DNA of 64,000 nucleotides, taken from contig OX393553.1 of assembly GCA_947650365.1 (NCBI GenBank), positions 67,952,216 through 68,016,215 on the forward strand, written 5' to 3'. Below the pieces are notes generated by a model. The model ran no database searches. It worked only from the letters and a program-made list of their open reading frames with translations, and was not told where the DNA came from. Position numbers and translations under genes: made by a program. Below, piece after piece: positions 30,523 to 64,000 of this stretch. Source of the DNA: Chamaelirium japonicum. Lineage: Eukaryota; Streptophyta; Magnoliopsida; Liliales; Melanthiaceae. Within the stretch, counting starts at the first letter, position 1. Each line of letters begins with the position of its first letter.

Positions 30523-30527
30523 CATGC

Positions 30528-31159: not shown

Positions 31160-31178
31160 GTTTGGCACCGTCTGTGGG
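31160..31178 (+). promoter_or_regulatory. Primer-binding region of the gag-only element
   Basis: GTTTGGCACCGTCTGTGGG follows the 5' LTR. This is the leader word common in Tat/Athila-type gypsy elements. The exact tRNA is not assigned. Confidence 0.7.
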
Positions 31179-31278
31179 ATTACGATCCTATCAACTTACA
31201 ACTTCTAAGCCTCCCAACTCCTTTGGTAGCTACTACCGGTTGCCCGAGCAATCCGTCTATCTCCATCATTACACCTAA

Positions 31279-32865
31279 ATGGCAAAGACATCGATAGACC
31301 AGCCAGAGGAAAGCAGCATGCACCCAGACGCTCGACATCCGACAACTCGATCAATGAGCCATCGGTTTGCAACAATCCAACACCCGGAACAACAACTCGC
31401 TACTAATCCAAAGAGTCGCCCGTCGGTTGATCGCGTCGCCCAGGCTCAACCTCGACATTCACCTCAACTCGCCGACCTAACTCCTCAGTGCTTGGGAAAA
31501 TCACATATCTCTTCCAGTGCCGATGCTCAAGCGAAGTACAAAATCACTGTAGAGGATTTCCATCTCCTTACTCTAATGAAGCAGAACGCTGCTCTTATGG
31601 TTGAAAGAGACTCTCTTCGACAAATCACCGTCAATGCAAGAATCAATCCCCCGCAGTCAACCACCGACATCAACGACGGAGCAAACGTCCGTCGGTCGGT
31701 CGACCAATATTTCGCTCCTTCCAGACGACCTGCCGTCGACATCCCTCGACAGTCCCTTGAATCCCTCTCAAGAAGACCCTCGCCTATTCCTCCCAAACCA
31801 ACGGTCTGGAAACGGCTCAATGAATCTGCTCGCTATCCTAAGCCTCTCGGTTCCGAGTCATCCTTCGATCCCTGCATCGTGAGGGATGTTCGGAATGACG
31901 GACACCGCTCCAGAGTTCGACAATATTATAATGGCGACCAAGCCCCAGCTGGGCATCGGATGACGAAATGGACTCCGACGCCCTCTCTACCTCCTCTTCC
32001 TCCAAGACGCCTCACCAACCAGCGAGGCAATAGAAGGAACGATCATGCCTCCGAAGGCCTACTTCATCGGCATATTCTTCACGCCCTGTTTCCTCGAAGC
32101 TGGAAAGCCCTCGCTCTCCCCAAGTTCAACTGTTTGACTGGAGATCCGACGTTACACGTCCTCGCCTTCAGGCAAGCGTTGACGCCACATGATAGCGACA
32201 ACCAGGTTCTATGTCGCACCTTTGCTGGCAGCCTGGACGACATGTCTCTCGATTGGTATCATAACCTACCGACTGGTTCCGTGAGTTGGTTCGAGGATCT
32301 GGCAGATCTATTTGTTCAGCACTATCGGCTGAACCTCAAGCTGGAAAAGAAGCTGGACTCCCTTTATCGACTAAGGATGGGATCGAATGAAACCCTCCGA
32401 GAGTTCTCTCGGAGGTTCCGGAACGAGCATGCTGCACTCTCCGGACACCACCTTGACGATGAAGCCATCATGCTCGCATTCCAGAATGCCCTACACTTTG
32501 ACCTCCACATCTACAATGACCTCATCCGTAATCCTCCTTCCTCGCTCGGAGTTCTATTCGATCGAATTCAAAAAGAGATTGAGGTGGAGGACGATCAAGT
32601 CACTCGCAAGAAACGTGATATCAAGAAGCATCTTTTTAAAAAAGAACCAACAGCTCAAGCTCGCAACACTCAGGCTGACAAAGATAGAGCCTCCAAGAGG
32701 TTGAGGCAGTCAGGCGATAGACTTACAGAGTCTCAGAAACTACGGATACCAAAGAAAAGCACCCCATTGACCGATCAGAGTAAAATACCATCGACTGTCA
32801 ATAACTCGGAATGTCACTCATCTGAAATCCATGATGTAACATCTTCCGAGTTATCAATGAAATGA
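31279..32865 (+). CDS. Ty3-gypsy Gag protein, 528 aa
   Basis: The intact frame starts at ATG 31279 (context AAATGG), 120 bp after the LTR. Residues 1-250 are basic, Ser/Pro-rich and poorly conserved. Residues about 265-430 form the Retrotrans_gag domain, with LPKFNCLTGDPTLHVLAF, then MSLDWYHNLPTGSVSWFEDL, FVQHYRLNL, LYRLRMGSNETLREFSRRF and AFQNAL. The C-terminal 100 residues are Lys/Arg-rich. There is no CCHC zinc knuckle and no protease fused downstream. Gag forms the particle in which the RNA is packaged and copied. Here the enzymes would have to come from an autonomous partner. Keeping gag open while lacking pol is the defining feature of TR-GAG elements. Confidence 0.9.
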   Translation: MAKTSIDQPEESSMHPDARHPTTRSMSHRFATIQHPEQQLATNPKSRPSVDRVAQAQPRHSPQLADLTPQCLGKSHISSSADAQAKYKITVEDFHLLTLMKQNAALMVERDSLRQITVNARINPPQSTTDINDGANVRRSVDQYFAPSRRPAVDIPRQSLESLSRRPSPIPPKPTVWKRLNESARYPKPLGSESSFDPCIVRDVRNDGHRSRVRQYYNGDQAPAGHRMTKWTPTPSLPPLPPRRLTNQRGNRRNDHASEGLLHRHILHALFPRSWKALALPKFNCLTGDPTLHVLAFRQALTPHDSDNQVLCRTFAGSLDDMSLDWYHNLPTGSVSWFEDLADLFVQHYRLNLKLEKKLDSLYRLRMGSNETLREFSRRFRNEHAALSGHHLDDEAIMLAFQNALHFDLHIYNDLIRNPPSSLGVLFDRIQKEIEVEDDQVTRKKRDIKKHLFKKEPTAQARNTQADKDRASKRLRQSGDRLTESQKLRIPKKSTPLTDQSKIPSTVNNSECHSSEIHDVTSSELSMK

Positions 32866-32920
32866 TAGTTGCTTCAAGTTCAACAGAAGACTATCAAATT
32901 TTATCTCAACTTCTACTCAA

Positions 32921-33676
32921 TGCCACAGTTACTTCAGTTCGCGTTGCGACACGGCCGACTAACCTGCAACGGTACGAAGCTACGTGTCCCGATACATAGG
33001 TTCTACTAAAATGGCGCTACGCCTAAGTCCAACCGATACAAGGGTGCTACACTGAGTACTCCGAATCATTGGTGTCACACATGCTCCCGTTGTCACGTAA
33101 GGACACATGCACTAGTGCCTCGCCACAGTTAGTTTGGTTCGTGTTGCGACACGGCCAACTAAGCTGTAACGGTACAAAGTTACGTATCCCGATACGTAGG
33201 TTCGACTGAAACGGCGCTTCGCCTAAGTCCAATCGATACAAGGGTGCTACGCTGAGTACTCCGAATCATGGGCGTCGCACATGCTCCCGTTGTCACGTAA
33301 GAACACATACACTAGTGCCTCGCCACAGTTAGTTCGGTTCGCGTTGCGACACGGCCGACTAACCTGCAACAGTACAAAGCTACGTGTCACGATACGTAGG
33401 TTCGACTGAAACGACACTTTGCCTAAGTCCAACCGATACAAGGGCACTACGCAGAGTACTCCGAATCATTGGCATCGCACGTGCTCCCGTTGTCACGTAA
33501 GAACACATGTACTAGTGCCCTATCACAGTTAGTTCAGTACGTGTTGCAATACGACCGACTAACCTGCAGCTGCAATGGTACAAAGCTACGTGTCCCAATA
33601 CGTAGTCTCGACTGAAATGGCGCTTCGCCTAAGTCCAACAGATACAAAGGCACCACGCTGAGTACTCCGAATTCAT
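32921..33676 (+). repeat. Tandem array I, 200-bp unit, about 3.8 copies
   Basis: The word GCCACAGTTA and its variants recur at 32922, 33122, 33322 and (as ATCACAGTTA) 33522, exactly 200 bp apart. Each unit also has GTTGCGACACGG, CTACGTGTCCCGATAC and TGAGTACTCCGAATC. Confidence 0.92.
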
Positions 33677-33759
33677 ACCCCCGTTAATCAGTAAGTCCAA
33701 GGTTCCACCCTCGTCATACAAAGACAAAGCCCGAGACGGCGACATCGTCTCAGCCAAAG

Positions 33760-35262
33760 GTGATAGCCTTGGCATTCAAAAACAAAATCTAAGGCAAGCT
33801 TCGCTGCCTCGGCACCTGACGAAGCCCGAGACATCGGCAACGTCTCGGCCCGAGGCGACAGTCCGAGGCAGCCTTCATCGCATCGGCACCTGACGAAGCC
33901 CGAGACATCGGCAATGTCTCGGCCCGAGGTGACCCTCGCCTCGGCATTCGAAAACAAAGTCCGAGGCAAGCTTTGCTGCCTCGGCACCAAACAAAGTCCG
34001 AAACGTCGGCACCATCTCGGCCCGACGTGATCTTCGCCTCAGCATTCAATGACAAAGTCCGAGGTAGGCTTCACCGCCTCGGCACCTGACAAAACCCGAG
34101 ACGTCAACATTGTCTTGGCCAAAGGTGACAAACTTGGCATTCGAAAGCAAAGTCCGAGATGCTCCGCACCGTCTCGACATTCAAAGACAAAGTCGGAAGC
34201 AGGCTTCGCCGCCTCGGCACCTGACAAAGACCGAGACGTCAGCACCATCTCAGCCCGAGGCGACCTTTGCCTCGGCATTCGAAGACAGTCCGAGACAGCC
34301 TTCGCTGCCTCGGCACCTGCCAAAGCCCCAAATGTCAGCACCATCTCGGCCCAAGTCGACATCCTTGGTATTCAAAAGCAAAGTCCGAGGCAGGCTTCAC
34401 CGCCTCGGCACCAGACAAAACCCGAGACGTCGGCACCGTCTCGGCCCGAGGCGACCTTCGCCTCGACATTCGAAAACAAAGTCTGAGGCAGGCTTCATCG
34501 CTTCAGCACCTGACGAAGCCCGAAACGTCGGCAACGTCTCGGCCCGAGGTGACCTTCGCCTTGGCATTCGAAAACAAAGTCCGAGACAAGCTTCGTCGCC
34601 TCGGCACCTGACGAAGCCCGAGACATTGGCAATGTCTCGGCCATAGGCAACCTTCGCCTCGGCATTCGAAGACAAAGTCTGAGGCAGGCTTCACCGCCTC
34701 GGCACCTGACAAAGCCCGAGACCGCGACATCGTCTCGGCCCAAAGTGACAGCTTTGGCATTCGAAAGAAAAACCCGATCGAGACGTCGGCACAGTCTTGG
34801 CCCGAGGCAACCTTTGCCTCGGCATTAGAAGACAAAGTCCGAGGCAAGGTTCGCTGCCTCGACACCTAACAAAGCCCGAGACGTCGGCACCGTCTCGGCC
34901 CGAGGCGACCTTTGCCTCGGCATTCGAAGACAAAGTCCGAGGCAGGCTTCACCGCCTCGGCACCTGACGAAACCCGAGACGTCGACACCGTCTCGACCCG
35001 AGACAACCTTTGCCTTGGCATTCGAAGATAAAGTCCAAGGCAGGCTTCGCTGCCTCGACACCTGACGAAGCCCGAGACGTTGGCACCGTCTCGGCCCGAG
35101 GGGACCTTCACCTCGGCATTCAAAGACAAAATCCGAGGTAGGCCTCGCTGCCTCGGCACCTGACGAAGCCCGAGATGTCGGCACCGTCTCGGCCCGAGGC
35201 GACCTTCGCCTCGGCATTCTAATACAAAGTCCGAGGCAGGATTCGCTGCCTCGGCAATCGAG
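33760..35262 (+). repeat. Tandem array II, about 97-bp unit, roughly 15 copies, hairpin-forming
   Basis: The unit contains three neighbouring inverted repeats: CCGAGGCAG-gcttcg-CTGCCTCGG, CGAGACG-tcggcac-CGTCTCG and CCGAGGCGA-cct-TCGCCTCGG. Spacing of the landmark GGCATTC is 95-98 bp over most of the array, with a partial unit near 33860. All six frames stay partly open because of the repeat. None encodes a recognisable protein. Confidence 0.93.
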
Positions 35263-36202
35263 ATTCCGGTGATAACCGATCACTAGACCCATGGCCGGGA
35301 CCCGGGGTCGTCCATTTTCACGCACACACTCGACGCTGGATGAAAGACGCCGGACTCCCAAACTCAAATTATAGAGCCTACTACACAGTTCGACGTAGCA
35401 TCTGATCAAGAGGCCCTTTGCTTCCAATCCATTGCTTCCAACTCGGATGACAACAACGGTCAGGAATCGCCAACGACTATGACTCACTCTCAGCAATGGC
35501 ACCACTAACCTGGCATCCACTCACTAATGAGGCATCCAACTAATGAGTTGGTTGGTCCAACGTGGCAACCTGATATTCAGATGTTCAACACACATCAATG
35601 ACATCCATTCACATTACATCCACTTACATACAAGTTACAAGTGTGGTGATCAAAGGCGATTAACTATTAAGTTGGTTGGACAACGTTTTTTCCAGAGATG
35701 GCTGAATAGACATCCAATCACAGGGGCCGACCACTATCACCCTGAGAGCATGGGATTCATACCAGAAGATGAGAATCAACGTCCGGGGTTTGCACCTAAC
35801 AGAAGATCATTTCTACTTCTCTTCTCTTGCGTGGTGATCAAGCACGAAGCCAGAGCTCCTCCCATTCTCTCAATCCTCTGTAGCAGAGGAACGGACCTGC
35901 ACCCTCCCGATCTCATCTCCGATCGGCCAAGACTCTCCAACAGGCGGCTTCTTCATCGCACGATCAACCGATGACGGATCGAAGCCCCACTTCAAGCTTC
36001 AACTCCGATCCAATATCGGAGGCATGCTCCTCCCCTCTTGACCTCGACTCCGGCGAGCAAGCCGGGCTTCCCCACCTCTTCCCACATCCTTCGACCCCGA
36101 TCCGGGTGCAGCGTCAGCTCGCCTTGACGGATCAGCTAATCGACCCCACCTCGGATGAGTTACAGACAGAGAGAAAAGAGTGGGTGAGAGAATTGAGAAG
36201 TG

Positions 36203-36283
<81 letters not shown>

Positions 36284-36720
36284 CCCGGCCCCCGTTCCGC
36301 CTGCGCCCCGCCTCCACTGCCCGCCTGCGCCCGACCTCAGCGCGCCGCCTCCACTCCCGTCTCCATCTCCGGCCCGCGTCCACCACCCGCCGCAGCCGTC
36401 CTCCCGACCCCCCCCCCCGCGTCCGACCTCGGCCCGATGACCCCCTTGCCCCCCCCCCCCCCCCTCTGCATTTCTCCCGACCTCTGCATTTCTCCCGACC
36501 CCCCCCCCCCCCCCCCGTCTCTCTCTCACACGAGAATACCACTACAAGCCAAACCACTTCTACCGACCCACTACAAGCCAAACACCCTGTCCCACTAAAG
36601 ACAAAGGCTGAGATGGCTCAGATCACAGCCGTTTGATTTGGACTCGGTGCACAGCATTCTCACGGGGACTCCATCGTGGTTTCGATTTCATTGAATGTAA
36701 TCAAATGGTCAGCATTTTTA
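35263..36720 (+). other. Non-array spacer of the gag-only element
   Basis: This stretch between arrays II and IV carries the GA tract and C runs. An open frame at 35971-36636 starts with an ordinary-looking sequence but passes through the GA tract. I find no domain in it and do not call it a gene. Confidence 0.4.
36207..36279. repeat. (GA)36 microsatellite in the gag-only element
   Basis: A pure GA run is followed by a C-rich segment with several C10 or longer runs (36407-36510). The Arg-Glu reading frame across it is an artefact. Confidence 0.93.
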
Positions 36721-37235
36721 CCGACCCCCACTAGGAGAAAACCCCACCTACCACCTCGGGTGCTTTTGGGTCTACCCCGGGAGTCTCCCTATACAAACCC
36801 CCCAAAACCCAACCTGGGTTTTTGCAAAAATCTCCCAAGTCCTAAAAATTTTTGCTCAGAACCCCTTGTATCACTTTATGACAATAAACCTAGCTCAGGA
36901 TTTTTTACAAAAAAAAAACCCCTGCCAGGTTGCCACCCAGAATCTTTGACCAAACCCCCTTGCTCTTGATTTTTTGCACAGAATTGACCCGAATTTTTAC
37001 ATATAACCCCTTACCTAAGATTTTTTGCACAAAACCACACTTGGCCCTAACTTTTTGAACAGAACCCCCTACCTCTGACATTTTGCACAGAACCCGCCTG
37101 CCCCATGATTTTTTGGCACGAACCACCCCTGCTCCTAACGTTTTATACAAAACCCCCTGCCCCTGACTTTTTACACAAAACCCCCTATCCCTAATATTTT
37201 TTGACCAACGCCCCTCAGGTTTTTTAGCCTGAACC
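36720..37235 (+). repeat. Tandem array IV, degenerate units of about 36 bp
   Basis: Words of the form CCCCCTGCCCCTGACTTTTT and GCACAAAACC recur every 35-38 bp, with many substitutions. Confidence 0.75.
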
Positions 37236-37317
37236 GACTTGTGCGCAGCTATTTTTGTGACCCCAGTCAACCAGGTTACCACCTACCCAACTGGGAGGGG
37301 GTAACACACCAGTAGTC

Positions 37318-37855
37318 GATCCCACCCAACGGGTCGGCAGACGCACAACAGTCGGCCCCGGACAGGGGGTCGGTAGGCAGACGACGGTCGGCCCCTCGCA
37401 ACGGGTCGCAGACAGACGACGGTCGGCCCCGTGCAACGGGTCGACAGACAGACGACGGTCGGCCCCGCGCAACGGGTCGGCAGACAGACGATGGTGACCC
37501 CGCACAACGAGTCGGCAGACGCACAACAGTCGGCCCCGGACAGGGGGTCGACAGACAGATGATGGTCAGTCCCGGACAGGGGGTCGGCAGACAGATAGCA
37601 GTTGGCCCCGGACAGGGGGTCGGCAGACAGGCAGCTGTCAACCCCGGACAGGGGGTCGGCAGGCAGACAACAGTCGGCCCTGCGCAACGGGTCAGCAGAC
37701 AGACGATGGTCGGCCCCGCGCAATGGGTCGGCAGACGCACACTAGGCCGACCCCTGGCAGGGAGTCGGCGGGCCCAACGGTCAGCCTCTCGTAGCAAGTC
37801 GTCAGACAGATGACGACCAACCCCGGACAGAGGATCGGCAGACAAGCGACCGGTT
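37318..37855 (+). repeat. Tandem array III, about 40-bp units, roughly 13 copies
   Basis: Variants of CAGACAGACGACGGTCGGCC followed by CCGCGCAACGGGTCGG recur at about 37-42 bp. Two sub-types alternate in blocks: one has CGCAACGGG and the other GGACAGGGG. Confidence 0.9.
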
Positions 37856-37913
37856 TTGCACCAGAAAATCCCAACCAGCTAGGTTAACACCTATCTAGCT
37901 GGGAGGGGGTAAC

Positions 37914-38546
37914 TGTGGGTGTAAAATCTGGCTAACGCCCAATGGTGGGACCCACAGCCCCGCCTGGGGCCCACAAGTCCAACGCTGGGACCCGCAGCCC
38001 TGCCTAGGGCCCACGAGTCCAATGGTGGGACCCGCAGTCCTGCCTGGGGCCCACTTGTACTATCTGGGGTCTGGTAAATCCCCCCGAATATTTATCAAAC
38101 CCCGGATATTCCTGGAATATTCTCCAAATAAACTAAGCCCTTATAAATAGCAGACCCTGTAAATGATTCCAGATCCCAAATTCCAGACCAGAAACCCACT
38201 TTCTGTTTTCCAAGAGCTCCTTGAGCTTTCGGGTTTTCAGACTCCTTTTCCACCATCTGATTACTTGTAAGAAGCACTCCTCGGCCTGTCGAGAGTAGCT
38301 CTACTGTTTACTCAGAGATAGTGGATTCAAAGGTTGCGTCTTACCGCACGGAGACGTAGGCTTCGGCCGAACTTCGTCACCATATCCTGTGTCATCTATT
38401 TCTCTACCCTTCTACTCTACAGTTCTTGTGTGATAGCCCATCAAGTCACAAAACAGCGCTTCGAAGTGCGCCACATCCCGAAGGGTCAAACCTTCAATCG
38501 ACTGTTGGAGGAGGGTCACGTACGACGGCCGAAATCCTCCCCCGCA
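37914..38546 (+). repeat. 3' LTR of the gag-only gypsy element
   Basis: It is the direct-repeat partner of 30528-31159. The purine tract CTGGGAGGGGGTAAC lies directly before it. Confidence 0.93.
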
Positions 38547-39228: not shown

Positions 39229-50890
<11,662 letters not shown>

Positions 50891-52770: not shown

Positions 52771-53990
52771 ACGAAATCCGTAGTGGCGCACGGTTTTAAA
52801 ACGCGTCTTCTATGTTCGGGAGGGGAAATTATATAAGTTGCTCAGGATCTCCTTCTCTCCAGGTGACTTGGGGCTAACTCATGGCGTTGTACACCTCACC
52901 TCACCTCACCTCATCCATCTTGGCATTCCCGCCTCAGGAGTCTTGGCTCTTGGCTATTAGCCTATTGGATCTTGGTCGTCACAGCTTAGCTATGCAGGCT
53001 CATGACATGGAGCTTAAACTAACCTCCCATTAAGATCCAAAGAGCAAAGACTTCCTGAAGATAGAGAAGTCGGTGACCTCAGAAAACAAAGAAAGCCAAC
53101 ATCGTCAGCATCGCTTTATCTTCCAAGCCGCTAAAGATAAGTGGCAAGTCAGACAAAGACAAGGCTATCCCAAGCGCCACCACAGCAAAGAACATCGAGG
53201 ATGACCTTGGAGGAGCTTGAAGCTAAAAATAATCCCTTCTCAGATTCCCAAGTTTACTCCATGTTTGATGAGCTCCTACTAGAAAAGCTGATTGAACTTC
53301 CTCCACCAAAGAGGCCAAAGCAAGTGGACCGGGTTGACGACCCGTGATTTTGCAAATACCATCAGGTACTCAGGCACCCTATTGAGAGGTTTTTCGTCTA
53401 CAAAGAGGAGGTGATATCTCTCTCCAGACTGGGGAAGATCAAGATCGACTCCAATGATGTCACGATAGCAAACATGATGTCAGTCACCTTCGGCTCCTTC
53501 CTGCCAGTTCCAGTGTCCTTATCTCAAACTCCAGCAAAATTATGCATCATCCAGCAAGAGTCAATACTGAAGCCAACTCTGTGACAAGAACAAATGGATC
53601 CAAGGAAAAAGCAATGCCATGTAACCCCGTTGCCTAGAATTGAAGAATCATCACTATGGAGGCAGTCAACTTCTCAGCAGGCATTATCCTCACCCGGCGG
53701 CATTCTCCATCCCAGAGGTAGCTACTACTCCAGCAAGCGCTGCGTCCATCAAAGAACATTTCATCCCAGCAAGAACTCAAGGAGAGACACGAGTAAGGAG
53801 ACCCTAAAGTTGGCCTACTAGATAAGCCAACTATCGGGGAAGTTCAACTTCTACATCCTCTACTCCATGCATCTTCTCTTCCGATCGAAGAAATCAACCC
53901 AACTGGTTGGTGTCCAGAAGATGAACCAAAAGAACTCCCTGAGAGGCAAGTCCTCCCTCACAGTGAAGAGGTCCCCATCATGGCCTCGGC

Positions 53991-54550
53991 TAAGGGTGTG
54001 CATCGGTTCGAAACCGACCTATTTAGGCAAAACCCAAACCGATCCAACCTTTATCGGTTTTGAGGATTTTCAATCCGATCCAAACCGAACTAAAATTGGA
54101 ATCCAATCCAATTAAAGTAGGTTTGGATTGAATTGGATTGGATGGTCAGTTTAGGCTTTGGACCATGTTCTTTTTGGGCTCTCCCCTCCCCCGCTTCTAT
54201 TAGGACCTAGTTCAAACTTAAAAAATAATAATTGGTACCAAATCATTAGGCCTAAATAAGATTTTTAACTGATTTTGAGTCATCCTACATTATTGCAATG
54301 GTTGTTGATCGCAAGGGTATATGAGAACATATGGTATATTTAGTAAAATTTTGTATGTATATACATATGTCGGTTCGGTTCGGTTTAGGTCGGTTTTGAA
54401 TTTATAGCTCTGTCAACCGATCCAAGCATGTCGGTTTTTTAAAACCCAATCCGATCCGAACCATTGAGTGTGTTGAATCCGATCAAAATTGATCGGTTTG
54501 GTTTGGTTTGGTCGGTTTAATCGGTTTGGTTTTGATCCTGCACACCCCTA
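53991..54550. mobile_element. hAT MITE of a second family (CGGTTTGG-rich), 560 bp
   Basis: TIRs TAAGGGTGTGCA and TAGGGGTGTGCA. Perfect 8-bp TSD GCCTCGGC (53983-53990, 54551-54558). The interior is rich in CGGTTCGGTT/AACCGATCC words. It interrupts the gag remnant. Confidence 0.92.
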
Positions 54551-54686
54551 GCCTCGGCCCTTCCTTCTAAGGAAGTGGACCTCGTTGATGAAGAAGGTTG
54601 GACCATGGTGACACGAAGAAGAAAGCCACGCCGATCAAACTACATCACCGCTCCTATAGGCCACTATAAGTCATGGCTCATATGCT

Positions 54687-56270
54687 TGTGGTCGCGGAAA
54701 AAGATTCGGGTCGTCTCTATTGCGGATCACACGAGATTACAGAGTTTTTTTGATCAGGAGATTGTGGGAGAGATCCTCTGGAGGGTCCCTTTGATCCGCG
54801 TCTCCACGTGGTATTCGTGCGAGAGCTCTGAAGGGGTTGCCCGGGACAGAGGTCTTTACAGGGTGAGGGTTTTTGAGAGGCTAAGGAGTATCCGCCTTTG
54901 TTTTTGTCCCGTCCGTGCTTCGTGCTTTCTCGGCTAGGGAGGCTTTAGGTTTCGTTCCTTGGTCTTCGTGTCTTCCTCGATCCTTGCTTGACCTCGGTGT
55001 CCTTGATCGTCGGTTCGCGGCGTCGATCGTGCTTTTGGCGTCGGCTTTGGCTTTAGCTTTTGGCTTTAGCGTAGCTTTGGCGTGGCTCTGGCGTTTGCTT
55101 TGCTTTGGCGCTTGCGCTTGAACGTAGGCGGGTAGAGGCTTGCGATGCTTTAGTTCTTGCGGACTTCGCGTCGTATCGGCTAGAACGTGCGGTGCTTTGC
55201 TCGTGACCGTCGTAGTTGCTTGGCTTTGGCACGTGCGTTGCTTTAGCGCGGGCTTTACCGGTGCGTTGGCTTTGGCTTCTTGCGTGGGCTTTGGCTTTAG
55301 CTTCGACTCGATCTTCTTCTCGAACAGCGATGGCTACTTCTTCGGGGCTTCTTTATTCTTCCGGCTTCCTCGACGGTTGTGGCGTCGGCTTGGCTTTTCG
55401 GCAGGGGTAGCACCGATCCTCGTGCGACGGTTGTAGCGTCGGCTTTTGTTGACGAAGACGGCGGGTGTAGCACCGTTCCCCGTGCGACGGTTGTAGCGTC
55501 GACTTTTGTTGATGAAGACGGCGGGGGTAGCACCGATCCCCATGCGACGGTTGTAGCGTCGATTTTTTTGTTGACGAAGACGGCAGGGGTAGCACCGGCT
55601 TCAGGCTTTCTTCTCCCGGCTTTCTTCTTCGTGCGAGGAATCGATGCCTTTGTTGAAGACGACGGGTATTGTCGGCTTCGATCTTCTTCTCCGGCCTTTG
55701 CTTGTGGCGTCTTCGGAGCTGATGAAGATTGTTGGAGCAATCGGGTGATGACGACTCCGGTCTTCTTCTCCATGCTTTCTTCTTCGTGCGAGGAGTCGAA
55801 GCTTTGATCTTCGAGTGCAAGGTCTTCACGTTGATGAGGACTTGAAGGGCCAAGGACTCCCGTAGGATATGCTTGCCGTGCCTCGTGAAGCCTTCGGTCT
55901 TCAAGCGTTGGAGCTTCTTCGTAGCGCTCTTTCGTCTTCAGCTTTTCGGACCCTTTGTGCCTTCCCCCACCCCCTCTATTTATAGGCAAAGGTGGGTGGT
56001 TGGGGGAGATATTGCTGAAATCTTTTTGTTTCATCCAATATCTCCCCCCATAACCATCAAGATATTGTTCCTTGATTCGGGGAAACAAACTCGATCCCCT
56101 CCCTTTTAGTTGGGGTGGTTACGGGCTAGATGTGACTCGATCTTTTAAAGATTGAGTTGTTATTCTTGTTGCACTTTTGGATCGGATGGCGACACAACGT
56201 CATCTTATCCGTTGGATTGAGGGATCGTCGCGGATCTATGGCTACGTAGACGTCCACGCCACCTCCCCCC
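54687..56270 (-). repeat. Putative 3' LTR of the Tat element
   Basis: On the minus strand the LTR would end ...CCGCGACCACA at 54687, where the gag remnant's similarity stops. It contains GCCTATAAATAGAGG (plus strand 55975-55990) as promoter box. The purine-rich stretch GCGGGGGGAGG near 56265-56275 would be the PPT. Boundaries are inferred. The long minus-strand frame at 55297-56088 lies in it and has no domain. Confidence 0.5.
55399..55600. repeat. 60-bp tandem repeat, about 3.4 copies, in the putative LTR
   Basis: The unit GGTAGCACCGATCC, GTGCGACGGTTGTAGCGTCG, TTGTTGACGAAGACGG recurs at a 60-63 bp period. Upstream (54990-55310) is a looser CTTTGGC/GCTTTGG-rich tract. Confidence 0.9.
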
Positions 56271-56287
56271 GCATCGAGGCGGTTTTG

Positions 56288-56372
56288 ATTTCTTTTTCCT
56301 TTCTTTTCTTTTTCTTTTCTTTTCTTTTTCTTTTCTTTTTCTTTTTCTTTTTCTTTTCTTTTCTTTTTCTTT
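56288..56372. repeat. (CTTTT)n polypyrimidine tract
   Basis: About 85 bp of CTTTT/TTTTC repeats, a polypurine run on the minus strand. Confidence 0.9.
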
Positions 56373-57024
56373 TAGGGCCAGCCCCACCTCTCCATGAGGA
56401 GGGGGGCACGGTTTTCTAGAAGGGGGGCCGGTGGGCCCCCCTCCCTCTTTGTGTTCGAGTCACGGGTCTGGTGGGACCCGTTTGCTTCTAGTTGGACCAT
56501 GGCGCGCGGGTTGAGTTTGCACGTGGGCTGAGTGCGCATGCGGGCCGTCTGTGTGCGGGCCCAATTTCGCATGTGGGCCGTTGTGTATGGGCCAAGTTGC
56601 GCGTGTGGGCCGTTGCGTGCGGGCCCAAGTGCGTATGCGGGCCGTTCGTGTGCGGGCCCAAGTGCGTATGCGGGCCGTTCGTGTGCGGGCCCAATTTTGC
56701 ATGGGCAAGTTGGGTTCGACCCGAAGGTCATCGAGTGCGAGCCCATTTTTTCGTGTACAAATCGGGTTCGACCTGAAGGCCGTTGGGTGCGGGCCTTTTT
56801 TTCGTGTAAAAATCGGGTTCGGCCCGTGGGCTAATTTCGATGCCCACAAGTGCCCCCTCAAGTTCGAGCGCGCCCGCGGGAAACGCATAGCGGTTGGACT
56901 TGAGTCGCGTATTCGTGTGGGATTAGGTCTTTAAAAGGACCCCTGTTTTTCGTTTCTCTTCATTATCAGCGATTCCCGGCGGCTTGGAGTCGAGAGCTCT
57001 GCTAGGGTTTATTGCTTCGCAACG
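56373..57024 (+). promoter_or_regulatory. Presumed promoter and leader of the antisense gene
   Basis: It contains a tandem repeat of about 36 bp (56523-56712; TGCGTATGCGGGCCGTTCGT units), a TTTAAAAGG TATA-like box at 56930-56938 and a leader with GCTAGGGTTTATTGC before the first ATG at 57025. Confidence 0.5.
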
Positions 57025-57117
57025 ATGCCGAGGAGGATGAAGATGGTGACGCCATGGGGTTCGCGGAGGAGGGAAGACCGCCAGCCCGTGGACGGCGGAG
57101 GGTCACAAGCGAGGCGC

Positions 57118-57700
57118 GTTTTCTTCCTCCTCCTTCTTCTTCTTCTTCTTCTTCTTCTTCTTCTTCTTCTTCTTCGCATGGTGCGGGAGGGCGCAGGCCG
57201 GAGGAGAGGCTGCGAGGTGCGGAGGCGAGCTCGGCCGGGGGCTGCGATACGCGGCCGGCGCGTGGGCTGGAGACGGGGTGCGGAGCACGGGGCCGGGTTC
57301 GCGGGGCGCGGCGGGCGCAGCGGGCGCAGCCGGGGCTGCGGGCTGGAGCGGCAGGGCGCGGGGGCCGGAGCGGCACGCTGCGCGGGGGCCGGAGGTGCGG
57401 GCGCAGGGCGGCAGGGCGCGGGGGCCGGAGCCGGTCGGTGCAACAGCGGCACGGGCGGGCGCGTGGGCTGGAGGTGCGGGCGCAGGGCGGCAGGGCGCGG
57501 GGGCCGGAGCAGGGCTCGGCCGGAGGCGCGGGCGCAGGGCGGCAGGGCGCGGGGGCCGGAGCCGGGCTCGGCCGGAGGCGCGGGTGCAGGGCGGCATGGC
57601 GCGGGGGCCGGAGCCGGGCTCGGCCGGAGGCGCGGGCGCAGGGCGGCATGGCGCGGGGGCCGGAGCCGGTCGGTGCAACAGCGGCACGGGCGGGCGTGGG
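57118..57700. repeat. CTT tract followed by about 53-bp GC-rich tandem repeats
   Basis: A CTT run (57122-57176) is followed by units of GGGCGCAGGGCGGCAGGGCG, CGGGGGCCGGAGCCGGGC, TCGGCCGGAGGC. All frames on both strands remain open here because stop codons are rare in such GC-rich repeats, so protein predictions are unreliable. Confidence 0.85.
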
Positions 57701-58015
57701 CGGGCGCGTGGGCTGGAGGCGGGGTGCGGCGCGGCCGGTGTTTGGTCGGGGACGACGCACCCCCCCCCCCTGCATGTTTAATAGAAGAGATAGAGAGGGG
57801 GGGTCGTGGCTTTTTGCTATGACCCCCCTCTACTTTCTTTATTCGCTCAAGGCCCCCCCTGCTAGTTTTATCAGGAGAGAGGAGAGAGAGTCGTGGCTTT
57901 TTTGTTGTGACCCCCCTCTATTTTTCTTTATTTGCTCAAGGCCCCCCCCCCCTGATTTCTTCGTTTCTGTATTCGGAATCTATCTGACCTGGGTTTTGTC
58001 TTCTTTCTTTTTCAG

Positions 58016-60162
58016 GTCTCGTCGTTACGAGAGCTTTCCGAATTCCGACTGGATCGTTGATGCGGTCTCCCACGGGAGTACGCACCTTCGCTTCCCTTTC
58101 GCGCAGGTCTTCCACCACCGTGCTTTGAGACAGAAGACCGGACTGTCAGTACTTCAGCTTTTGACGCACGAGCGAGTTTGCGAGGATGGCGTGACCGACA
58201 GCTCTTGTCGAGTGTTGAAACTTGGCGAGCGTATCCTCACTGACGAAGGATCTTCCCGGCAAATCGTTCGGCCGAGCTTGGGGTTGCCGTTCCACCACAC
58301 TGGTGAGGAGTCAGTTCTGGTCCCTGTTGTTGCCTTGAAGATATGCTCCCGCCGTACGCGATGGGGTGTGGGGATTCAATCGCGTGGAGATGTCACGTAT
58401 CTGGGAGGCTTCCGGGACTGGATGAGAGAGCTATCCGGCGCGTTGGAGGCAGAGCCAGGGATGGAGCGTTTGGCGAGGTTTGTGGAGCCAGCTTGTTGGG
58501 AGTACAGTCGACCGGACGGTATATACCGGGCTCTGTGTGAGCAGTGGTGCCCTGAGACCAATACCTTTTTGACCGGAGCTGGTGAAATCGGGATCACCCT
58601 TCGTGACGTGCATGTCATCTCTGGGTGTCCAGAAGTTCGGAGTTACTATCAGGAGGAGGTTCCTTCTCTGGAGGTTTTGACGGACCCAGACGAGTCTCCT
58701 AGCTTCTGCCTTTTGCTTTTTAAGGCGTATGCTATTATAGCGGCGCGCGAGCGGTCAGACCGGGTAATTCACTCGGATTGGGTGGACTTCTGGTTTCGAG
58801 GAGAGTATCGTCACGCTCCCCCTTCGAGTCACCCGATGTGGAGATATGCTTCGTCAAAGAGACCGGCGCCTGGCACCTTCCGGCGACCGATTGAATCTCT
58901 GAAGAAAGAGTGGTGCTCCATGGCCGGGGCGCAACGTCCCTGGGAAGTTTTGGGACTTGAAGAATGCAGCGATGCCTGGCGTGCTGCTTACCGGTCAGCG
59001 GGGTTGGTACTTTTCCTTTGCCGTTTTGCTCTACCTTGGGAAGGGGATGTGATACGCCCTGGGACCTTCCTTGCGGCTGCTCAGATGGTGAATAGAGAGT
59101 TTCTTAACGTGGCGCCGACGATCCTCTGCTCGTTGTACGGAGGGCTTAGCGGGACCTATTGGAGTTTATCGAGTGCGGGAGATGCAAAAGGGGAGGTAGG
59201 CAGGGCCAGTTCCTTTTGCCCCCTGCATTACCTCTATGGTTGGATTGGGCTTCATTTTTCGAAGGGGATCTTCGCAGCGCGTGGACCTTCGACCTCGGTG
59301 CCCTTTCTCCCTTGTGTGGGAGGTGTGATGAATGCTTTTTACGCATGGGAGCGTCCGAAGCCTAGTGCCCGCGAGTGTTTGAGACGTATGGACCCTTCTG
59401 ACTTTGAATTCGTGTCAGAGAATGCACTTGCACCTTCTACCAGATCCTTGGTATGTGATGTGGAGGAAATGCCCGAGCACTTGTACTGGAGCATGGTGAG
59501 TTGCCGGCCTGGGTACCTCATTTGGCGTCGTGGGGATGTAGTGGAGGTGGCACGGTACTCTCCCCACCGGTTTGCTCGATAGCAGGGCTTTCGTCAGGAG
59601 TTGTCTGGGACTCCTTTGCGTATGAAGTCACGTTACACCCCGCAGGAAGCGTATCGCCTCTGGGGAGCGCTTTATGACAGATTTACTGGGTGTATTTTCT
59701 CGCCGAGGATCAAGTCGGGCGGAAAGGATGCTGCTACTCCTGAGTATCGCCGCTGGGTCAACGTGTCAGTGATCCCCCTCCTAGCTAGCCTTCAGCTGGA
59801 TGTTCTTGCTAGTAGCGAGCGGGCTGACTTTTCTTTTGACTCTTTGGCGGGGTCAGAGGATCGCCGTCTTTGGTCCGAGGAGCGACGATCGGAGAGATCT
59901 CGTGGCCATCGAGAGAGTGTTTCCCAGGCTTCACTTTCTGTGCAAGAAGTTGAGATGGATCCATCCTCCAAGGTTCAGAGTCTTCCTGAGACTCAGACTT
60001 CTTGGAGTGGGTGTGCTTCTCCCAAGAGGAGGAAGTTGGATCTCCTGTGTGAGGCAGCTTCGGTTGGTGCTGGCGAGACAGAGCCAGCCCGAGAGGGAGA
60101 GCCAGGGCTTTTTGCCGATGAGGTAATCCCTCTTTCTGGGGTAGCTTCATCGGATGCTGCAG
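58016..60162 (+). CDS. Plant mobile domain (aminotransferase-like) protein of the Tat element, main exon, one in-frame stop
   Basis: The exon is taken to start after acceptor TTCTTTCTTTTTCAG (ending 58015). It first codes RYESFPNSDWIVDAV and similar. From about 58490 it enters a plant mobile domain (PF10536 type): CWEYSRPDGIYRALCEQWCP, TLRDVHVISGCPEV, WVDFWFRGEY, FLCRFALPWEGDVIRPG, CSLYGGLSGTYW and YLYGWIGLHF. A TAG at 59580-59582 interrupts the frame after SPHRFAR. The same frame then continues as QELSGTPLRMKSRYTPQEAY to 60162, ending with donor GTATAT. A single C-to-T change (CAG to TAG) would explain the stop. The gene is antisense to pol. The N-terminal exon(s) upstream, in 57025-57780, could not be resolved. 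Confidence 0.72.
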
Positions 60163-60247
60163 GTATATCTTGTTTCTAGTTCTTCATGAATTTCTGTGTT
60201 TGTTCCCTTATTTCGTTGGCTGAGTTGTTCAGCTCTAATTTTGGCAG

Positions 60248-61221
60248 GGTCTGCTGGACCGGACTGCGAGTCTGCCCCGAAGGAGGTTGGGCAGGAGTGC
60301 TCTCCTATCAGGGCAACGTTGATTGAAGGTGGCGGGCTGGATGTCCCCTGGGATAACTTGGAGCTTTTGGGAGCGTGTGGAGCGGATTTTGCCGGCAGCG
60401 CTGTCGACCTGGATGATATTGACGTGGAGCAGTTGGGCTTTAAGGAGGAGGATGAGGTCTCCAGTGTAGGGAGAGAACCGACTCCTCTAGTCAGGTCCGG
60501 TACTCCGGTGGAGATTACTCCCGCAGTCGTTTTGTGGGAAGGTTTACCCGTGTCTCCTCCTTCGGCTCCGGTGGTTTCGCTGACTGTTATCACGGCGATG
60601 GTCCAGGAGGCGGTTCCTTCACTTGGGCCTTCAGGACCGGAGCCCACCTTGCCTGTGCACTCAGAGGCCGACAGGAGAAAGTGCAGTTCGCGAGACCTTC
60701 TCTCTATGCTTCTTTCGGAGAGCTGCCGGAAGTATATCCAGACGACGCTTGCACCCTTCCAGGAAGAGGGCCTTGACGCTTTGAACAGCTGGTGGGTCCT
60801 AGAGGGGCCTGAGTTTTGTAAGAACCTGGCGGCCTTCCAGGTAGATGGCTCTTTGTTTGAGGCACAGATGCGTGTTCTCTTGGCGGATAGTGAAGCTCAT
60901 TGCTTGAAACGGGCTTCGATGGAAGATGACCTTCCCCTGGTACTAGCAAAGGCCGAGGACGAGGAGCGTCGACTGGAGGCGCAGCATGCACTTGCTACTG
61001 CGAGCCTTGTTCGGGCGCAGAAGAAGCTAGAGGCTGCTCGCGCATTTTTCGAGAAAGCTGAGGCGATCGAGAAGTCTTCTGGAGCAGACCTGGCAAAGCA
61101 GCGTATCGAGCTGGCGACGCATCGGGAGCGGGTAGCTTCTTGGTCTTCAGAATTGCAGCGCATGGAGGTTACTGGCGGCGAGCTGCTCCAACGTCTCAAA
61201 GAGTTTGATTCACTTTACTAG
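60248..61221 (+). CDS. Plant mobile domain protein, last exon with coiled coil
   Basis: The 85-bp intron 60163-60247 has GTATAT donor and TTTTGGCAG acceptor. Splicing joins the frames exactly (G plus GG gives Gly). The exon first codes an acidic, Ser/Pro-rich linker. It then codes a region with SRDLLSMLLSESCRKYIQ, and an Ala/Glu/Arg-rich coiled coil (about the last 110 residues: AKAEDEERRLEAQHALATAS, KKLEAARAFFEKAEAIEK) ending KEFDSLY. Retained intron would meet TAG within 16 bases. Confidence 0.78.
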
Positions 61222-61497: not shown

Positions 61498-64000
61498 TTA
61501 GGCATAGTACCTTTTGAGGTACTTGCCATTGATAGGGCCAAGTGTAAGCCCTTCTGGCGTGGTAAGAAGATACGCGCCATTGGAGTAGACTTCTTTGATA
61601 GTGTGTGGTCCATCCCACTTGGCGTCGAACTTCTTTCCTCCTCGATGCGAAAGGATGATGGGACGTTTGACCGCGAGCACCAATTCCCCTTTTTGGAAGG
61701 ATCGAGGGCGAATCCTTTTGTTAAAGGCTCGAGTCAACCTGGCTTGGTAGCATTCCAGACGTTGCTGGGCTTCGAGGCGCTTCTCATCCAAGGCTTCCAA
61801 TTCTGCTAGGCGAAGTTGAGCGTTGTCGTCGTTGATGAGGCCTTCCTGGACAGCTATTCTGAGTGACGGAATCTGGAGCTCGAGTGGGAGGACAGCTTCT
61901 ACTCCATATACTAGTGAGTACGGAGTCGCCTGTGTTGGCGTGCGAAAAGAGGTGCGATATGCCCATAGCGCTTCGCCCATACGTTCATGCCAGTCTTTCT
62001 TTGATTTTGAGACGACTTTCTCCAAAAGTTTGCAGAGTGTTTTATTGAAAGCTTCTGCTAGACCGTTGGCCGAGGCGTTGTACATGGTTGAACATCTTTG
62101 CTTGATATCGAATTTGGCGCAAAACTGGGTGACAGCGGCATTCTTGAATTGCTTCCCGTTGTCTGTGACAATATAACGAGGAATGCCGTACCGGAAGATG
62201 ATGTCGTTCTGGATGAAATTGATGACGGAGTGCCTGGTAACTTCTCGCAATGGTACTGCCTCAGCCCACTTGGAGAAGTAATCTGTTGCCGCCAGGATGT
62301 AAAGATGCTGCTTGGATGACTTGGGTAGCGGTCCGACAATATCAAGTCCCCATCCATCGAAGGGCCATGATGCGATGGTTGGATGCAAAGGTTCCGGAGG
62401 CTGACGGATGTAGTCGCCATGCAGCTGGCAAGTGTGGCATTTTTTTGCAAACTCGAGGGAGTCCTTGACCATAGTGGGCCAGTAGTACCCCATCCGCCTG
62501 ATGCGGAAGTGCAGCTTTGGACCAGGCTGATGTGAGCCACAGATCCCGGCATGAACTTCTTCTAGTACTGTTTCCGCTTCTTCTTTTGCAAGACACCTCA
62601 GGAGCGTACCATCGTAGCTTCGACGGTACAACTCGTTGTTGAAGTGGAAGAATTTCAGAGACCGTCGGCGAATGTCGACCTTACGTTTTGGATCTTCAGG
62701 GAGCTTCCCGTGGACGAGGAAGTCTATGAATGGTTGTCTCCAATCTAGCTCGTCAGTTACGAGAACGTGTACTGCGTTAACTTGGTCCAGGATCCCCATA
62801 GGGAGGTCCTTCTCGGTGACTACCATCCTCTTACAGATAGGGACGATGAGCTGGTTTCTTTCTGGGAATGAGAGTGTAGCCGCTAAATTTGCGAGCGCAT
62901 CAGCCTGCTGATTAAGGTTTCTGGGGACATGCTGGATTGAAGCACTTGAAAACGCACCAAAGAGTTTCAGGGCTTGCAGATGCAATGGCACGAGATCTTC
63001 TTTATTGACTTCGTATGCCCCCAATATTTGCTGAATGACGAGTTGAGAGTCGCCGAAAATTTCGAGCCCTCGAAGTTTCATATCATTGGCGAGTTCAAGG
63101 CCAATGATCAAAGCTTGATATTCCGCCCTGTTATTTGAGCACGGCTCCGATAGTAGAAATGAGAAGGGAAGTACTTCGTCGTTTGGTGTGACGAAGATAA
63201 CTCCTGCTCCTGCTACGCCTTGCCTTGCCGCACCATCGAAAAACATTTTCCAAGAAGGGGCGATGTCGATGCAGAATATTTCTTCATCTGGGAGATCTTC
63301 CGATAGCTCCCATTCTGCTGGCAGGGGATATTCTACCAGGAAGTCCGCGAGAGCTTGACCTTTGACCGCTTTACGAGGGACAAAGGTGATATCAAACTCG
63401 AGGAGGAGTAGAGCCCACTTGGCCAAACGTCCGGAGAGCACTGGCCTCGACATAATGTATTTGAGCGGGTCGGCTTTTGAGATGAGTCTGATAACGTGAG
63501 CTAACATGTAGTGTCGCAGCTTCTTTGTAGCAAAGATGAGCGCCAGACAGACCTTCTCAATCGGGGAGTAGTTTAGCTCCGCGCCAATGAGAGTGCGGCT
63601 CAAATAGTAGCATGCTGTTTCCTTGCCTAGCTCGTTGTCTTGAGCCAGGAGTGCCCCCAAGGATTGCTCCTGGGCGCTGATGCAAAGGACCAATGGCTTT
63701 CCTTGAACTGGTGCTGTCAGAACCGGAGGCTTGAGTAAGTAGTCCCTGATGTTTTGGAGGGCTTCCTGACAAGCCTCATCCCACTTGAATGCTGCTCCTT
63801 TCTTCATGAGGCGACTGAAGGGCCTACATTTTCCAGCTAAGTTGACGATAAACCTTCTGATATATGCTAGATGGCCCTGGAGACCTCGGAGGTCTCGTAC
63901 GGTTTTCGGGATTGGCATATTGAGAATAGCATCTATCTTAGATTGATCTATCTCGATGCCTCGATGTCGTACGACAAAGCCAAGAAACTTTCCCGAGGAG
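61498..64000 (-). CDS. Tat gypsy Pol, C-terminal part: RT end, two RNase H domains, integrase (partial)
   Basis: The frame is open to the window edge. In order it has: the RT tail (KFLGFVVRHRGIEIDQSK, then PKTVRDLRGLQGHLAYIRRF); the usual gypsy RNase H (VLCISAQEQSLGALLAQDN, LIFATKKLRHYM); a second, archaeal-type RNase H (MFFDGAARQGVAGAGVIF with catalytic D, NRAEYQALIIGLELA with E, IFGDSQLVIQQI with D, NQQADALANLA with D). Then comes integrase: an HHCC finger (HAGICGSHQ, CHTC), then DDE residues in WGLDIVGPLPK, YIVTDNGKQFKN and GLAEAFNKTL, and a C-terminal domain (AKWDGPHTIKEV). Two RNase H domains mark the Tat lineage. There is no frameshift, so this part of pol may be functional. Confidence 0.95.
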   Translation of the reverse strand, partial: SSGKFLGFVVRHRGIEIDQSKIDAILNMPIPKTVRDLRGLQGHLAYIRRFIVNLAGKCRPFSRLMKKGAAFKWDEACQEALQNIRDYLLKPPVLTAPVQGKPLVLCISAQEQSLGALLAQDNELGKETACYYLSRTLIGAELNYSPIEKVCLALIFATKKLRHYMLAHVIRLISKADPLKYIMSRPVLSGRLAKWALLLLEFDITFVPRKAVKGQALADFLVEYPLPAEWELSEDLPDEEIFCIDIAPSWKMFFDGAARQGVAGAGVIFVTPNDEVLPFSFLLSEPCSNNRAEYQALIIGLELANDMKLRGLEIFGDSQLVIQQILGAYEVNKEDLVPLHLQALKLFGAFSSASIQHVPRNLNQQADALANLAATLSFPERNQLIVPICKRMVVTEKDLPMGILDQVNAVHVLVTDELDWRQPFIDFLVHGKLPEDPKRKVDIRRRSLKFFHFNNELYRRSYDGTLLRCLAKEEAETVLEEVHAGICGSHQPGPKLHFRIRRMGYYWPTMVKDSLEFAKKCHTCQLHGDYIRQPPEPLHPTIASWPFDGWGLDIVGPLPKSSKQHLYILAATDYFSKWAEAVPLREVTRHSVINFIQNDIIFRYGIPRYIVTDNGKQFKNAAVTQFCAKFDIKQRCSTMYNASANGLAEAFNKTLCKLLEKVVSKSKKDWHERMGEALWAYRTSFRTPTQATPYSLVYGVEAVLPLELQIPSLRIAVQEGLINDDNAQLRLAELEALDEKRLEAQQRLECYQARLTRAFNKRIRPRSFQKGELVLAVKRPIILSHRGGKKFDAKWDGPHTIKEVYSNGAYLLTTPEGLTLGPINGKYLKRYYA

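What the first reader, a model, noticed from the sequence alone, without database searches (positions are those of the whole stretch)
57025..61221. Antisense plant-mobile-domain gene inside a Tat gypsy element, with intron, coiled coil and one stop codon
The gene runs opposite to pol, has its own leader and TATA-like box, an 85-bp GT-AG intron that restores the frame exactly, and a C-terminal coiled coil. Tat elements are known to carry extra antisense genes, and plant mobile domains occur both in host silencing proteins (MAIN/MAIL) and in transposons. One TAG (59580) separates two conserved halves in the same frame, so the gene is only just inactivated or may be read through. Its role for the element is unknown.
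Basis: partly seen in the sequence, partly recalled or inferred. Interest (0 to 1): 0.75.

Follow-up and report, generated by a model that had tools for sequence, protein, structure and literature searches.

The report
Antisense accessory gene in plant retrotransposon
A large family of plant jumping genes carries, on the opposite strand to its main genes, an extra intron-containing protein gene that evolution has kept working; the copy in this window has been broken by one private stop codon, and the extra gene is of a known kind whose job is still unknown.

Summary
The main points hold. Between pol and the 3' LTR of a Tat-type Ty3/gypsy element, a + strand gene runs opposite to pol and encodes a divergent plant mobile domain (PF10536, E 6.4e-11). 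The window's own genome lists 83 places with the PMD exon, a lower bound. In 30 fetched copies the codon at 59580 is a stop only in the window copy. The 85-bp intron keeps GT and AG in the 29 copies that align there. Variants shared by three or more copies give omega 0.10, 0.30 and 0.42 in the three coding pieces, against 1.4 or more in wrong frames. Exon 1 is narrowed to two phase-compatible donors. A coiled coil was not supported. An NLS-like motif (28 of 29 copies) lies beyond the stop. PMD genes in Gypsy elements and antisense genes in Tat elements are published, so this is a new member of a known kind; the conserved introns and measured constraint are the additions. The function is inferred.

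The parts
54687..56848 (-). 3' LTR of the element (TGTGG...CCACA)
   Evidence: The copy 20,125 bp to the right in the genome aligns over 2161 bases at 98.4%; ends set by hand from the printed edges, with ATGCT on both outer sides.
54682..54686 (.). target-site duplication ATGCT
   Evidence: The same five bases follow the outer end of the 5' LTR, outside the window.
55977..55984 (-). TATA-like box (TATAAATA) of the LTR promoter for gag-pol
   Evidence: Sequence only; inferred.
56849..56866 (-). [quoted passage not shown]
   Evidence: Position and G-rich run on the - strand; inferred.
56930..56936 (+). TATA-like box TTTAAAA of the antisense gene, inside the element about 80 bp from the LTR edge
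   Evidence: TTTAAAA in 27 and TTTATAA in 2 of 29 copies that align there; the whole leader is conserved, so this is not specific evidence.
57025..57113 (+). exon 1 with start ATG; ends at 57113 or 57101
   Evidence: ATG in 29 of 29 aligned copies; 57025-57113 gap-free in 29 of 30; phase-compatible GT at 57102 in 25 and at 57114 in 14 of 30, at least one of them in 30 of 30; at 57114 the window copy has GC. The codon-level test was inconclusive.
57114..58015 (+). intron 1, with GC-rich tandem arrays (52-bp unit, 57466-57669)
   Evidence: Acceptor AG in 30 of 30 copies; length 872-1436 bp; tandem arrays; median identity to the window copy 0.74 in the GC-rich part.
58016..60162 (+). exon 2: PMD region and the stretch beyond the TAG
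58518..59150 (+). plant mobile domain match (profile positions 18-162 of 347)
   Evidence: PF10536 E 6.4e-11; matched in 14 of 14 copies scanned.
59580..59582 (+). in-frame TAG private to this copy
   Evidence: Stop in 1 of 30 copies (the window copy), sense in 29 of 30.
60018..60041 (+). nuclear-localisation-like motif SPKRRKLD
   Evidence: Four basic residues in a row in 28 of 29 copies (L024 left out). In shuffles, four basic residues in a row arise in 260 of 2000 and P plus four in 23 of 2000.
60163..60247 (+). intron 2, 85 bp
   Evidence: GT and AG in 29 of 29 copies after L024 (unrelated there) was dropped; 85 bp in 28 of 30; 8 of 3118 windows as GC-poor.
60248..61221 (+). exon 3, acidic then charged C-terminal tail
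   Evidence: 124 matches in the genome, itself included, the others at 89-93%.
61498..63999 (-). pol (RNase H, additional RNase H, integrase), open; continues beyond the window

Best explanation
This is a genuine accessory gene of a high-copy Tat-type Ty3/gypsy family. It lies between pol and the 3' LTR, tail to tail with pol, and is read from its own promoter just inside the 3' LTR on the opposite strand. Its message is spliced: a short exon 1, a variable intron 1, a PMD exon, an 85-bp intron 2 and a C-terminal exon. The product is a nuclear protein with a divergent PMD, an NLS-like motif and a charged tail. Because the genomic RNA is copied from the other strand, these introns are not seen as introns in it and survive reverse transcription. 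The copy in the window was inserted recently (LTRs 98.4% alike) and its gene carries one private stop, while sister copies keep the frame. Shown: gene, constraint, conserved splice sites, orientation, private stop. Inferred: promoter, splicing, nuclear location. Most likely role, inferred with about 0.4 probability: in the nucleus the protein keeps the family expressed, by imitating or disturbing the host's PMD proteins of the MAIN/MAIL1 type that help silence transposable elements.
For: PMD match above the curated cut-off and in 14 of 14 copies scanned. 83 places with exon 2 and 124 with exon 3, window copy included, both lower bounds. Shared-variant omega is 0.10 (N36 S170), 0.30 (N26 S40) and 0.42 (N36 S40) in exon 2, the piece after the TAG, and exon 3. 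Wrong frames give 3.1-4.0 for exon 2 and 1.4-2.0 for the other two (1.15-1.52 before L024 was dropped). Pol for comparison is 0.11 (N7 S35). Intron-2 splice sites are conserved in 29 of 29 copies and intron 1 has its acceptor in 30 of 30. NLS-like motif in 28 of 29. In 13 of 14 copies tested, out of 29 sister copies fetched, the pol piece lies on the opposite strand at the expected distance. Paired LTRs with a target-site duplication. Published parallels: Gypsy-encoded PMD clades (PMC5418596); nuclear antisense gene of Grande read from its own promoter (PMC7264820).
Against: No transcript or protein evidence was available. Exon-2 copies were picked by protein similarity, which biases omega in exon 2 downwards; the other two pieces were not used for picking, but came with the same copies. 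The contrast between shared variants and singletons is strong in exon 2 (Fisher p 6e-12) but modest in the other two pieces (0.012 and 0.025). Exon 1 is not proven as coding. The 'DOWN' motif linked to MAIN/MAIL1 targets is not enriched (2 matches in the whole window with one mismatch allowed, 3.96 expected). The genome-wide PF10536 search did not list this gene among its 126 matches, since it scores only the best candidates and the match is weak and partial. Similarity to another PMD protein of this genome is short (38% over 40 residues), so a shared function is not shown. The coiled coil, a possible dimerisation part, was not supported.
Confidence: 0.6

Rival explanations
1. The stop is programmed: the gene normally makes a short PMD protein and, by read-through, a long one.
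For: The piece after the TAG is constrained in the same frame (omega 0.30).
Against: The codon is sense in 29 of 30 copies, so there is no conserved stop to be read through.
Confidence: 0.02
2. The protein helps integration, nuclear import or targeting of the pre-integration complex rather than acting against silencing.
For: NLS-like motif in 28 of 29 copies. Such roles are proposed for antisense genes of this group (PMC7264820); a regulatory role is proposed in PMC11963269.
Against: Nothing here ties the protein to integrase or Gag; the PMD of host proteins is tied to gene expression and silencing (PMC7156037).
Confidence: 0.3
3. The main function is the antisense RNA itself, which pairs with about 4 kb of genomic RNA and feeds siRNA production; the protein is secondary.
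For: Antisense position over the whole pol-3'LTR region; the possibility is named in PMC7264820.
Against: Codon-level constraint in one frame only and conserved splice sites point to a protein.
Confidence: 0.1
4. A single host gene or another transposon was captured by this one copy.
For: Another PMD protein with one long frame exists in the genome (L001, 691 aa).
Against: 83 places carry the same exon. Of the eight PMD loci compared (L001-L008), only L001 and L003 gave weak tblastn matches (26% over 96 and 39% over 49 residues). The PMD of L001 lies in one uninterrupted frame, whereas this gene has two introns.
Confidence: 0.02
5. Chance open frame in GC-rich repeat sequence.
For: Fits 57006-58013, where several frames on both strands are open and codon bias is absent from the repeat part.
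Against: Not true for exons 2 and 3.
Confidence: 0.01

Closest known systems
PMD-A1/PMD-A2 proteins of plant Gypsy retrotransposons (Ikeda et al. 2017, PMC5418596; passages seen)
   Same: Plant mobile domain encoded inside a Ty3/Gypsy element of a plant.
   Different: Clade not tested here, since no named PMD references were at hand; the word 'intron' does not occur in the main text held.
eORFs with pfam10536 in Ogre elements (Neumann et al. 2019, PMC6317226; passages seen)
   Same: Tat-group element with an additional RNase H between RH and integrase, and an extra frame with the same domain (57% of Ogre elements).
   Different: The passages seen do not say that the Ogre PMD frames lie at the 3' end in reverse; Ogre or Retand membership of this element was not resolved.
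Antisense genes of Retand, Grande and RIRE2 (Vicient 2025, PMC11963269, parts 1-3 of 5 seen; Vicient and Casacuberta 2020, PMC7264820, parts 1-2 of 3 seen)
   Different: Retand genes carry Transposase_28; the parts of Vicient's survey seen list no PMD. No Transposase_28 match here.
Host MAIN/MAIL1 (PMD-C) silencing proteins (PMC7156037, PMC5418596; passages seen)
   Same: Plant mobile domain; MAIL1 is nuclear.
   Different: Host genes, not element genes; no direct comparison with MAIN or MAIL1 was made here.
VANC anti-silencing proteins of VANDAL transposons (search listing and a passage in PMC13317346)
   Same: Would work alike if the anti-silencing reading is right: an accessory protein of a transposon that opposes silencing of its own family.
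   Different: A different kind of element, and no relation between the proteins is claimed or was tested; a resemblance in supposed role only.

Membership tests
Tat clade of Ty3/gypsy (Ogre/Retand arrangement) | Additional RNase H between the original RNase H and integrase | tested here: met
   RT_RNaseH 101-202, RVT_3 254-373, H2C2 472-527, rve 546-641; motifs with the D, E, D, D residues located.
LTR retrotransposon | Paired LTRs, TSD, polypurine tract | tested here: met
   LTR pair 98.4% over 2161 bases and TSD ATGCT; polypurine tract by position only.
Ogre versus Retand sub-lineage | Primer binding site type and RT phylogeny | tested here: inconclusive
   The stretch next to the 5' LTR was read but not matched to a tRNA; no reference RT set at hand.
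Plant mobile domain proteins (PF10536) | Profile match above curated cut-off | tested here: met
   42.5 bits against 34.9; covers profile 18-162 of 347 only; 14 of 14 copies scanned match.
PMD-A clade of Gypsy-encoded PMDs | Position in the PMD tree | not tested
   No named reference sequences at hand.
Retand antisense genes | Transposase_28 (PF04195) domain | tested here: not met
   No match in the frame of 57006-58013, in exon 2 before the TAG, in the piece after the TAG, or in exon 3. The frame of exon 1 itself was not scanned.
Nuclear accessory proteins such as Grande gene23 | Nuclear localisation and own promoter | not testable with these tools
   Only a conserved NLS-like motif and a conserved TATA-like leader.

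The most novel reading that the evidence does not exclude
A high-copy Tat family keeps, under purifying selection, a two-intron antisense gene whose PMD protein acts in the nucleus against the host's own PMD-based silencing pathway. Antisense orientation is the trick that lets a retroelement carry a spliced, intron-bearing gene through an RNA stage without losing the introns.
Probability: 0.3. Interest if true: 0.8.

Novelty: new member of a known kind. Interest (0 to 1): 0.5.

Why it matters
PMD frames in Gypsy elements and antisense genes in Tat elements are known, but papers seen here call their function unknown and ask for a look at antisense and spliced transcripts (PMC7264820). This family gives a measured answer to one part: the frame is under constraint on both sides of the stop and in exon 3, splice sites of two introns are conserved, and the gene is present in many copies of one genome. 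That makes it a good system for asking what a transposon-encoded PMD does, and whether host MAIN/MAIL1 silencing proteins and element PMD proteins work against each other.

Tried and rejected
Rejected: programmed read-through; capture by this one copy; the open frame 57006-58013 as coding (ATG 57054 is present in 30 of 30 copies, but its frame runs unbroken into the PMD frame in only 2 of 30); my own first guess of the LTR edge at 56265 (notebook), which the LTR pair showed to be wrong.

Led nowhere: relatives in IMG/VR for the PMD exon (no pattern match) and for pol (9 pattern matches, none a relative) and in GTDB contigs (16 pattern matches, none a relative); PDB by sequence (none at E up to 1); codon usage trained on pol did not single out the frame; the 'DOWN' motif; the heptad test; tRNA scan of the window (none). 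Structure prediction was never accepted. Searches included a non-homologous stretch of L024, and one search also the unrelated L056, which pushed singleton omega towards 1; one search repeats the count without them (L024 dropped for the last two pieces, L056 for pol) and its numbers are used. In one search singletons give 0.47, 0.68 and 0.80.
Full report
What is there. The + strand of 57025-61221 holds a gene that runs against pol (- strand, 61498-63999, open to the window edge). Pol shows RNase H, a second RNase H, the integrase zinc domain and the integrase core in that order, with the catalytic-type motifs of the second RNase H and of integrase present. By the criterion in PMC6317226 (passages), a second RNase H between RH and integrase is the Ogre/Retand arrangement of the Tat clade. 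The LTR pair was found once the window's genome could be searched. The window's 3' LTR is 54687-56848 and its partner lies 20,125 bp to the right; 2161 bases align at 98.4% with 33 mismatches, and ATGCT flanks both outer ends. The Jukes-Cantor distance of 0.0154 means about 0.6 million years at 1.3e-8 per site per year or 1.2 at half that rate; both rates are recalled.

The gene. PF10536 matches residues 169-379 of the exon-2 piece with E 6.4e-11 and 42.5 bits against a curated cut-off of 34.9, covering profile positions 18-162 of 347; 14 of 14 copies scanned match. Stop-free length exceeded simulation in exon 2 (0 of 500), in the piece after the TAG (1 of 500) and in exon 3 (0 of 500). Codon-position bias was reached by 2, 1 and 0 of 500 simulations, and by 0 of 500 for pol; part of the LTR (54800-56265) and the intron-1 region gave 286 and 77 of 500, exon 1 150 of 500, and smaller sub-pieces of exon 2 were not significant alone. 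Codon usage trained on pol did not discriminate. Pfam searches of the piece after the TAG and of exon 3 gave nothing above cut-off.

The copies. A protein search of the own genome (1.52 Gb, 3253 contigs) with the exon-2 piece returned 83 matches, the window copy at 100% and the rest at 93-95% (a lower bound). By my count of that table 69 of 83 have no stop inside the match. An exon-3 search returned 124 matches, the window copy at 100% and the rest at 89-93%, of which 98 have no stop by my count. The 30 best exon-2 places were fetched with 1500-base flanks, the window copy included. A genome-wide PF10536 search listed 126 matches (117 candidates scored of 3270) but not this gene, which scores weakly.

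The stop. At 59580 the window copy has a stop and the other 29 of 30 copies have a sense codon. Of the 30 copies, 16 have no stop or frameshift in the three coding pieces as far as held (exon 3 to 61077) and 14 do, the window copy among them. Changes private to the window copy are N7, S6 and one stop in exon 2 with the stop codon, N8 S7 in the next piece and N13 S7 in exon 3. With the estimated chance of 0.029-0.051 that a random change makes a stop, about two stops would be expected among these 49 changes, so one is unremarkable. This looks like decay, not recoding. The NLS-like motif and exon 3 lie beyond the stop, so this copy's product would lack both.

Constraint. Variants carried by three or more copies were compared with the neutral expectation from the singleton spectrum. 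Omega is 0.10 (N36 S170) in exon 2 (30 copies), 0.30 (N26 S40) in the piece after the TAG and 0.42 (N36 S40) in exon 3 (29 copies each, L024 dropped because it is unrelated there); binomial p 1e-49, 9e-7 and 1e-4. Singletons give 0.47, 0.68 and 0.80; singletons differ from shared variants at Fisher p 6e-12, 0.012 and 0.025. Wrong frames give 1.42 to 1.97 for the last two pieces (1.15 to 1.52 before L024 was dropped) and 3.1 to 4.0 for exon 2. A C-terminal piece of pol gives 0.11 (N7 S35, 14 sequences, L056 dropped as unrelated). Exon 2 is biased downwards because copies were picked by its protein; the other two pieces were not used for picking.

Introns. Intron 2 keeps GT and AG in 29 of 29 copies that align there, L024 being dropped, and is 85 bp in 28 of 30. 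Only 8 of 3118 85-bp windows of the gene are as GC-poor. Frame restoration alone would be weak, since 36 of 122 GT-AG pairs achieve it. Intron 1 is inferred: the acceptor at 58015 is AG in 30 of 30. Sequence between 57114 and 58015 varies from 872 to 1436 bp, while 57025-57113 is gap-free in 29 of 30. Two phase-compatible donors exist, 57102 (GT in 25 of 30) and 57114 (GT in 14 of 30), and every copy has at least one; the window copy has GT at 57102 and GC at 57114. Codon-level evidence for exon 1 is inconclusive: omega 0.75, p 0.28, and 1 of 30 copies has a stop in it.

Why introns can persist. The element's genomic RNA is made from the other strand, on which these signals are not splice sites; only the antisense message is spliced, and it is not what is reverse transcribed. 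This is inference from the arrangement, not a measurement. In 13 of 14 copies tested (of 29 sister copies fetched) the pol piece lies on the opposite strand at the expected distance.

Product. SPKRRKLD at 60018-60041 resembles a classical nuclear signal (recalled); 28 of 29 copies keep four basic residues in a row. In shuffles four basic residues in a row arise in 260 of 2000 and P plus four in 23 of 2000. The coiled coil was not supported (203 of 1000 shuffles). The genome also holds a 691-residue single-frame PMD protein (L001); whether it is a host gene was not tested. A profile comparison aligns 40 residues at 38% identity around the W-C-x-E-T-N-T-F stretch. L001 also carries a Y-x-P-H-R-x(4)-F-G-F-x-Q stretch that by eye resembles the sequence on either side of the TAG, in keeping with the stop lying inside the domain.

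Known and new. Gypsy-encoded PMDs are published as clades PMD-A1 and A2 (PMC5418596, passages), as the most frequent of the non-canonical domains found in one survey (PMC9289625, passages) and in 57% of Ogre elements (PMC6317226, passages). Antisense genes between pol and the 3' LTR are published for Grande, RIRE2 and Retand (PMC7264820 parts 1-2 of 3; PMC11963269 parts 1-3 of 5). Steinbauerova et al. 2011, which ties PMD to Gypsy extra frames, and the Grande paper are not held and are known to me only through citations and recall. Ten searches, several with only the top of a longer list shown, listed no paper whose title or abstract start describes introns in such a gene; this does not show that none exists.

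How it most likely works. A nuclear accessory protein that helps the family, most likely by acting on transcription or silencing, given what host PMD proteins do (PMC7156037, passages; PMC9899485, passages). Nothing here tests it, and the one indirect test, the 'DOWN' motif, was negative (2 matches in the whole window, 3.96 expected).

Noticed in passing
window 30527-38542: LTR retrotransposon with 630-bp LTRs (97.5% alike), a 528-residue gag frame (PF03732) and long tandem repeats at about 32922-35256; no match to this window's pol between the LTRs, so probably non-autonomous.
   Followed up: partly
G000:C5, right of the window: This copy's LTRs are 20,125 bp apart, against 13,755-15,096 bp in six other pairs of neighbouring LTR matches (others at 18,353 and about 9,860 bp; 21 of the 40 places were paired), so about 5 kb extra, probably a nested insertion, lies outside the window.
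   Followed up: no
G000:C2:43464457-43484892: Three related LTRs in a row at 9,877 and 9,857 bp spacing, which suggests a tandem of shorter derivatives sharing LTRs.
   Followed up: no
window 57102 and 57114, copies L009-L038: The copies fall into three donor types (GT/GC 16, GT/GT 9, GC/GT 5 of 30), as if the exon-1 donor has moved by 12 nt between subfamilies.
   Followed up: partly
window about 53990-54551: Short insertion with ends CTAAGGGTGTGCA and TGCACACCCCTAG flanked by GCCTCGG on both sides, MITE-like.
   Followed up: no
window 28932-29726 (-): Reverse transcriptase, by its look of the non-LTR type (PF00078, E 1.7e-36).
   Followed up: no
window 46747-47031 (+): Ras/Rab-type GTPase exon (PF00071, E 4.4e-21), part of a host gene or a copy of one.
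   Followed up: no
L001 835-2910 (-), G000:C4:7684603-7688691: Single-frame 691-residue PMD protein with a full-length PF10536 match; the capped genome search listed 126 PMD matches, many with stops inside.
   Followed up: partly
window 55371-55597 and 56533-56826: Tandem arrays (60-bp, 33-bp and 52-bp units) inside the 3' LTR.
   Followed up: no
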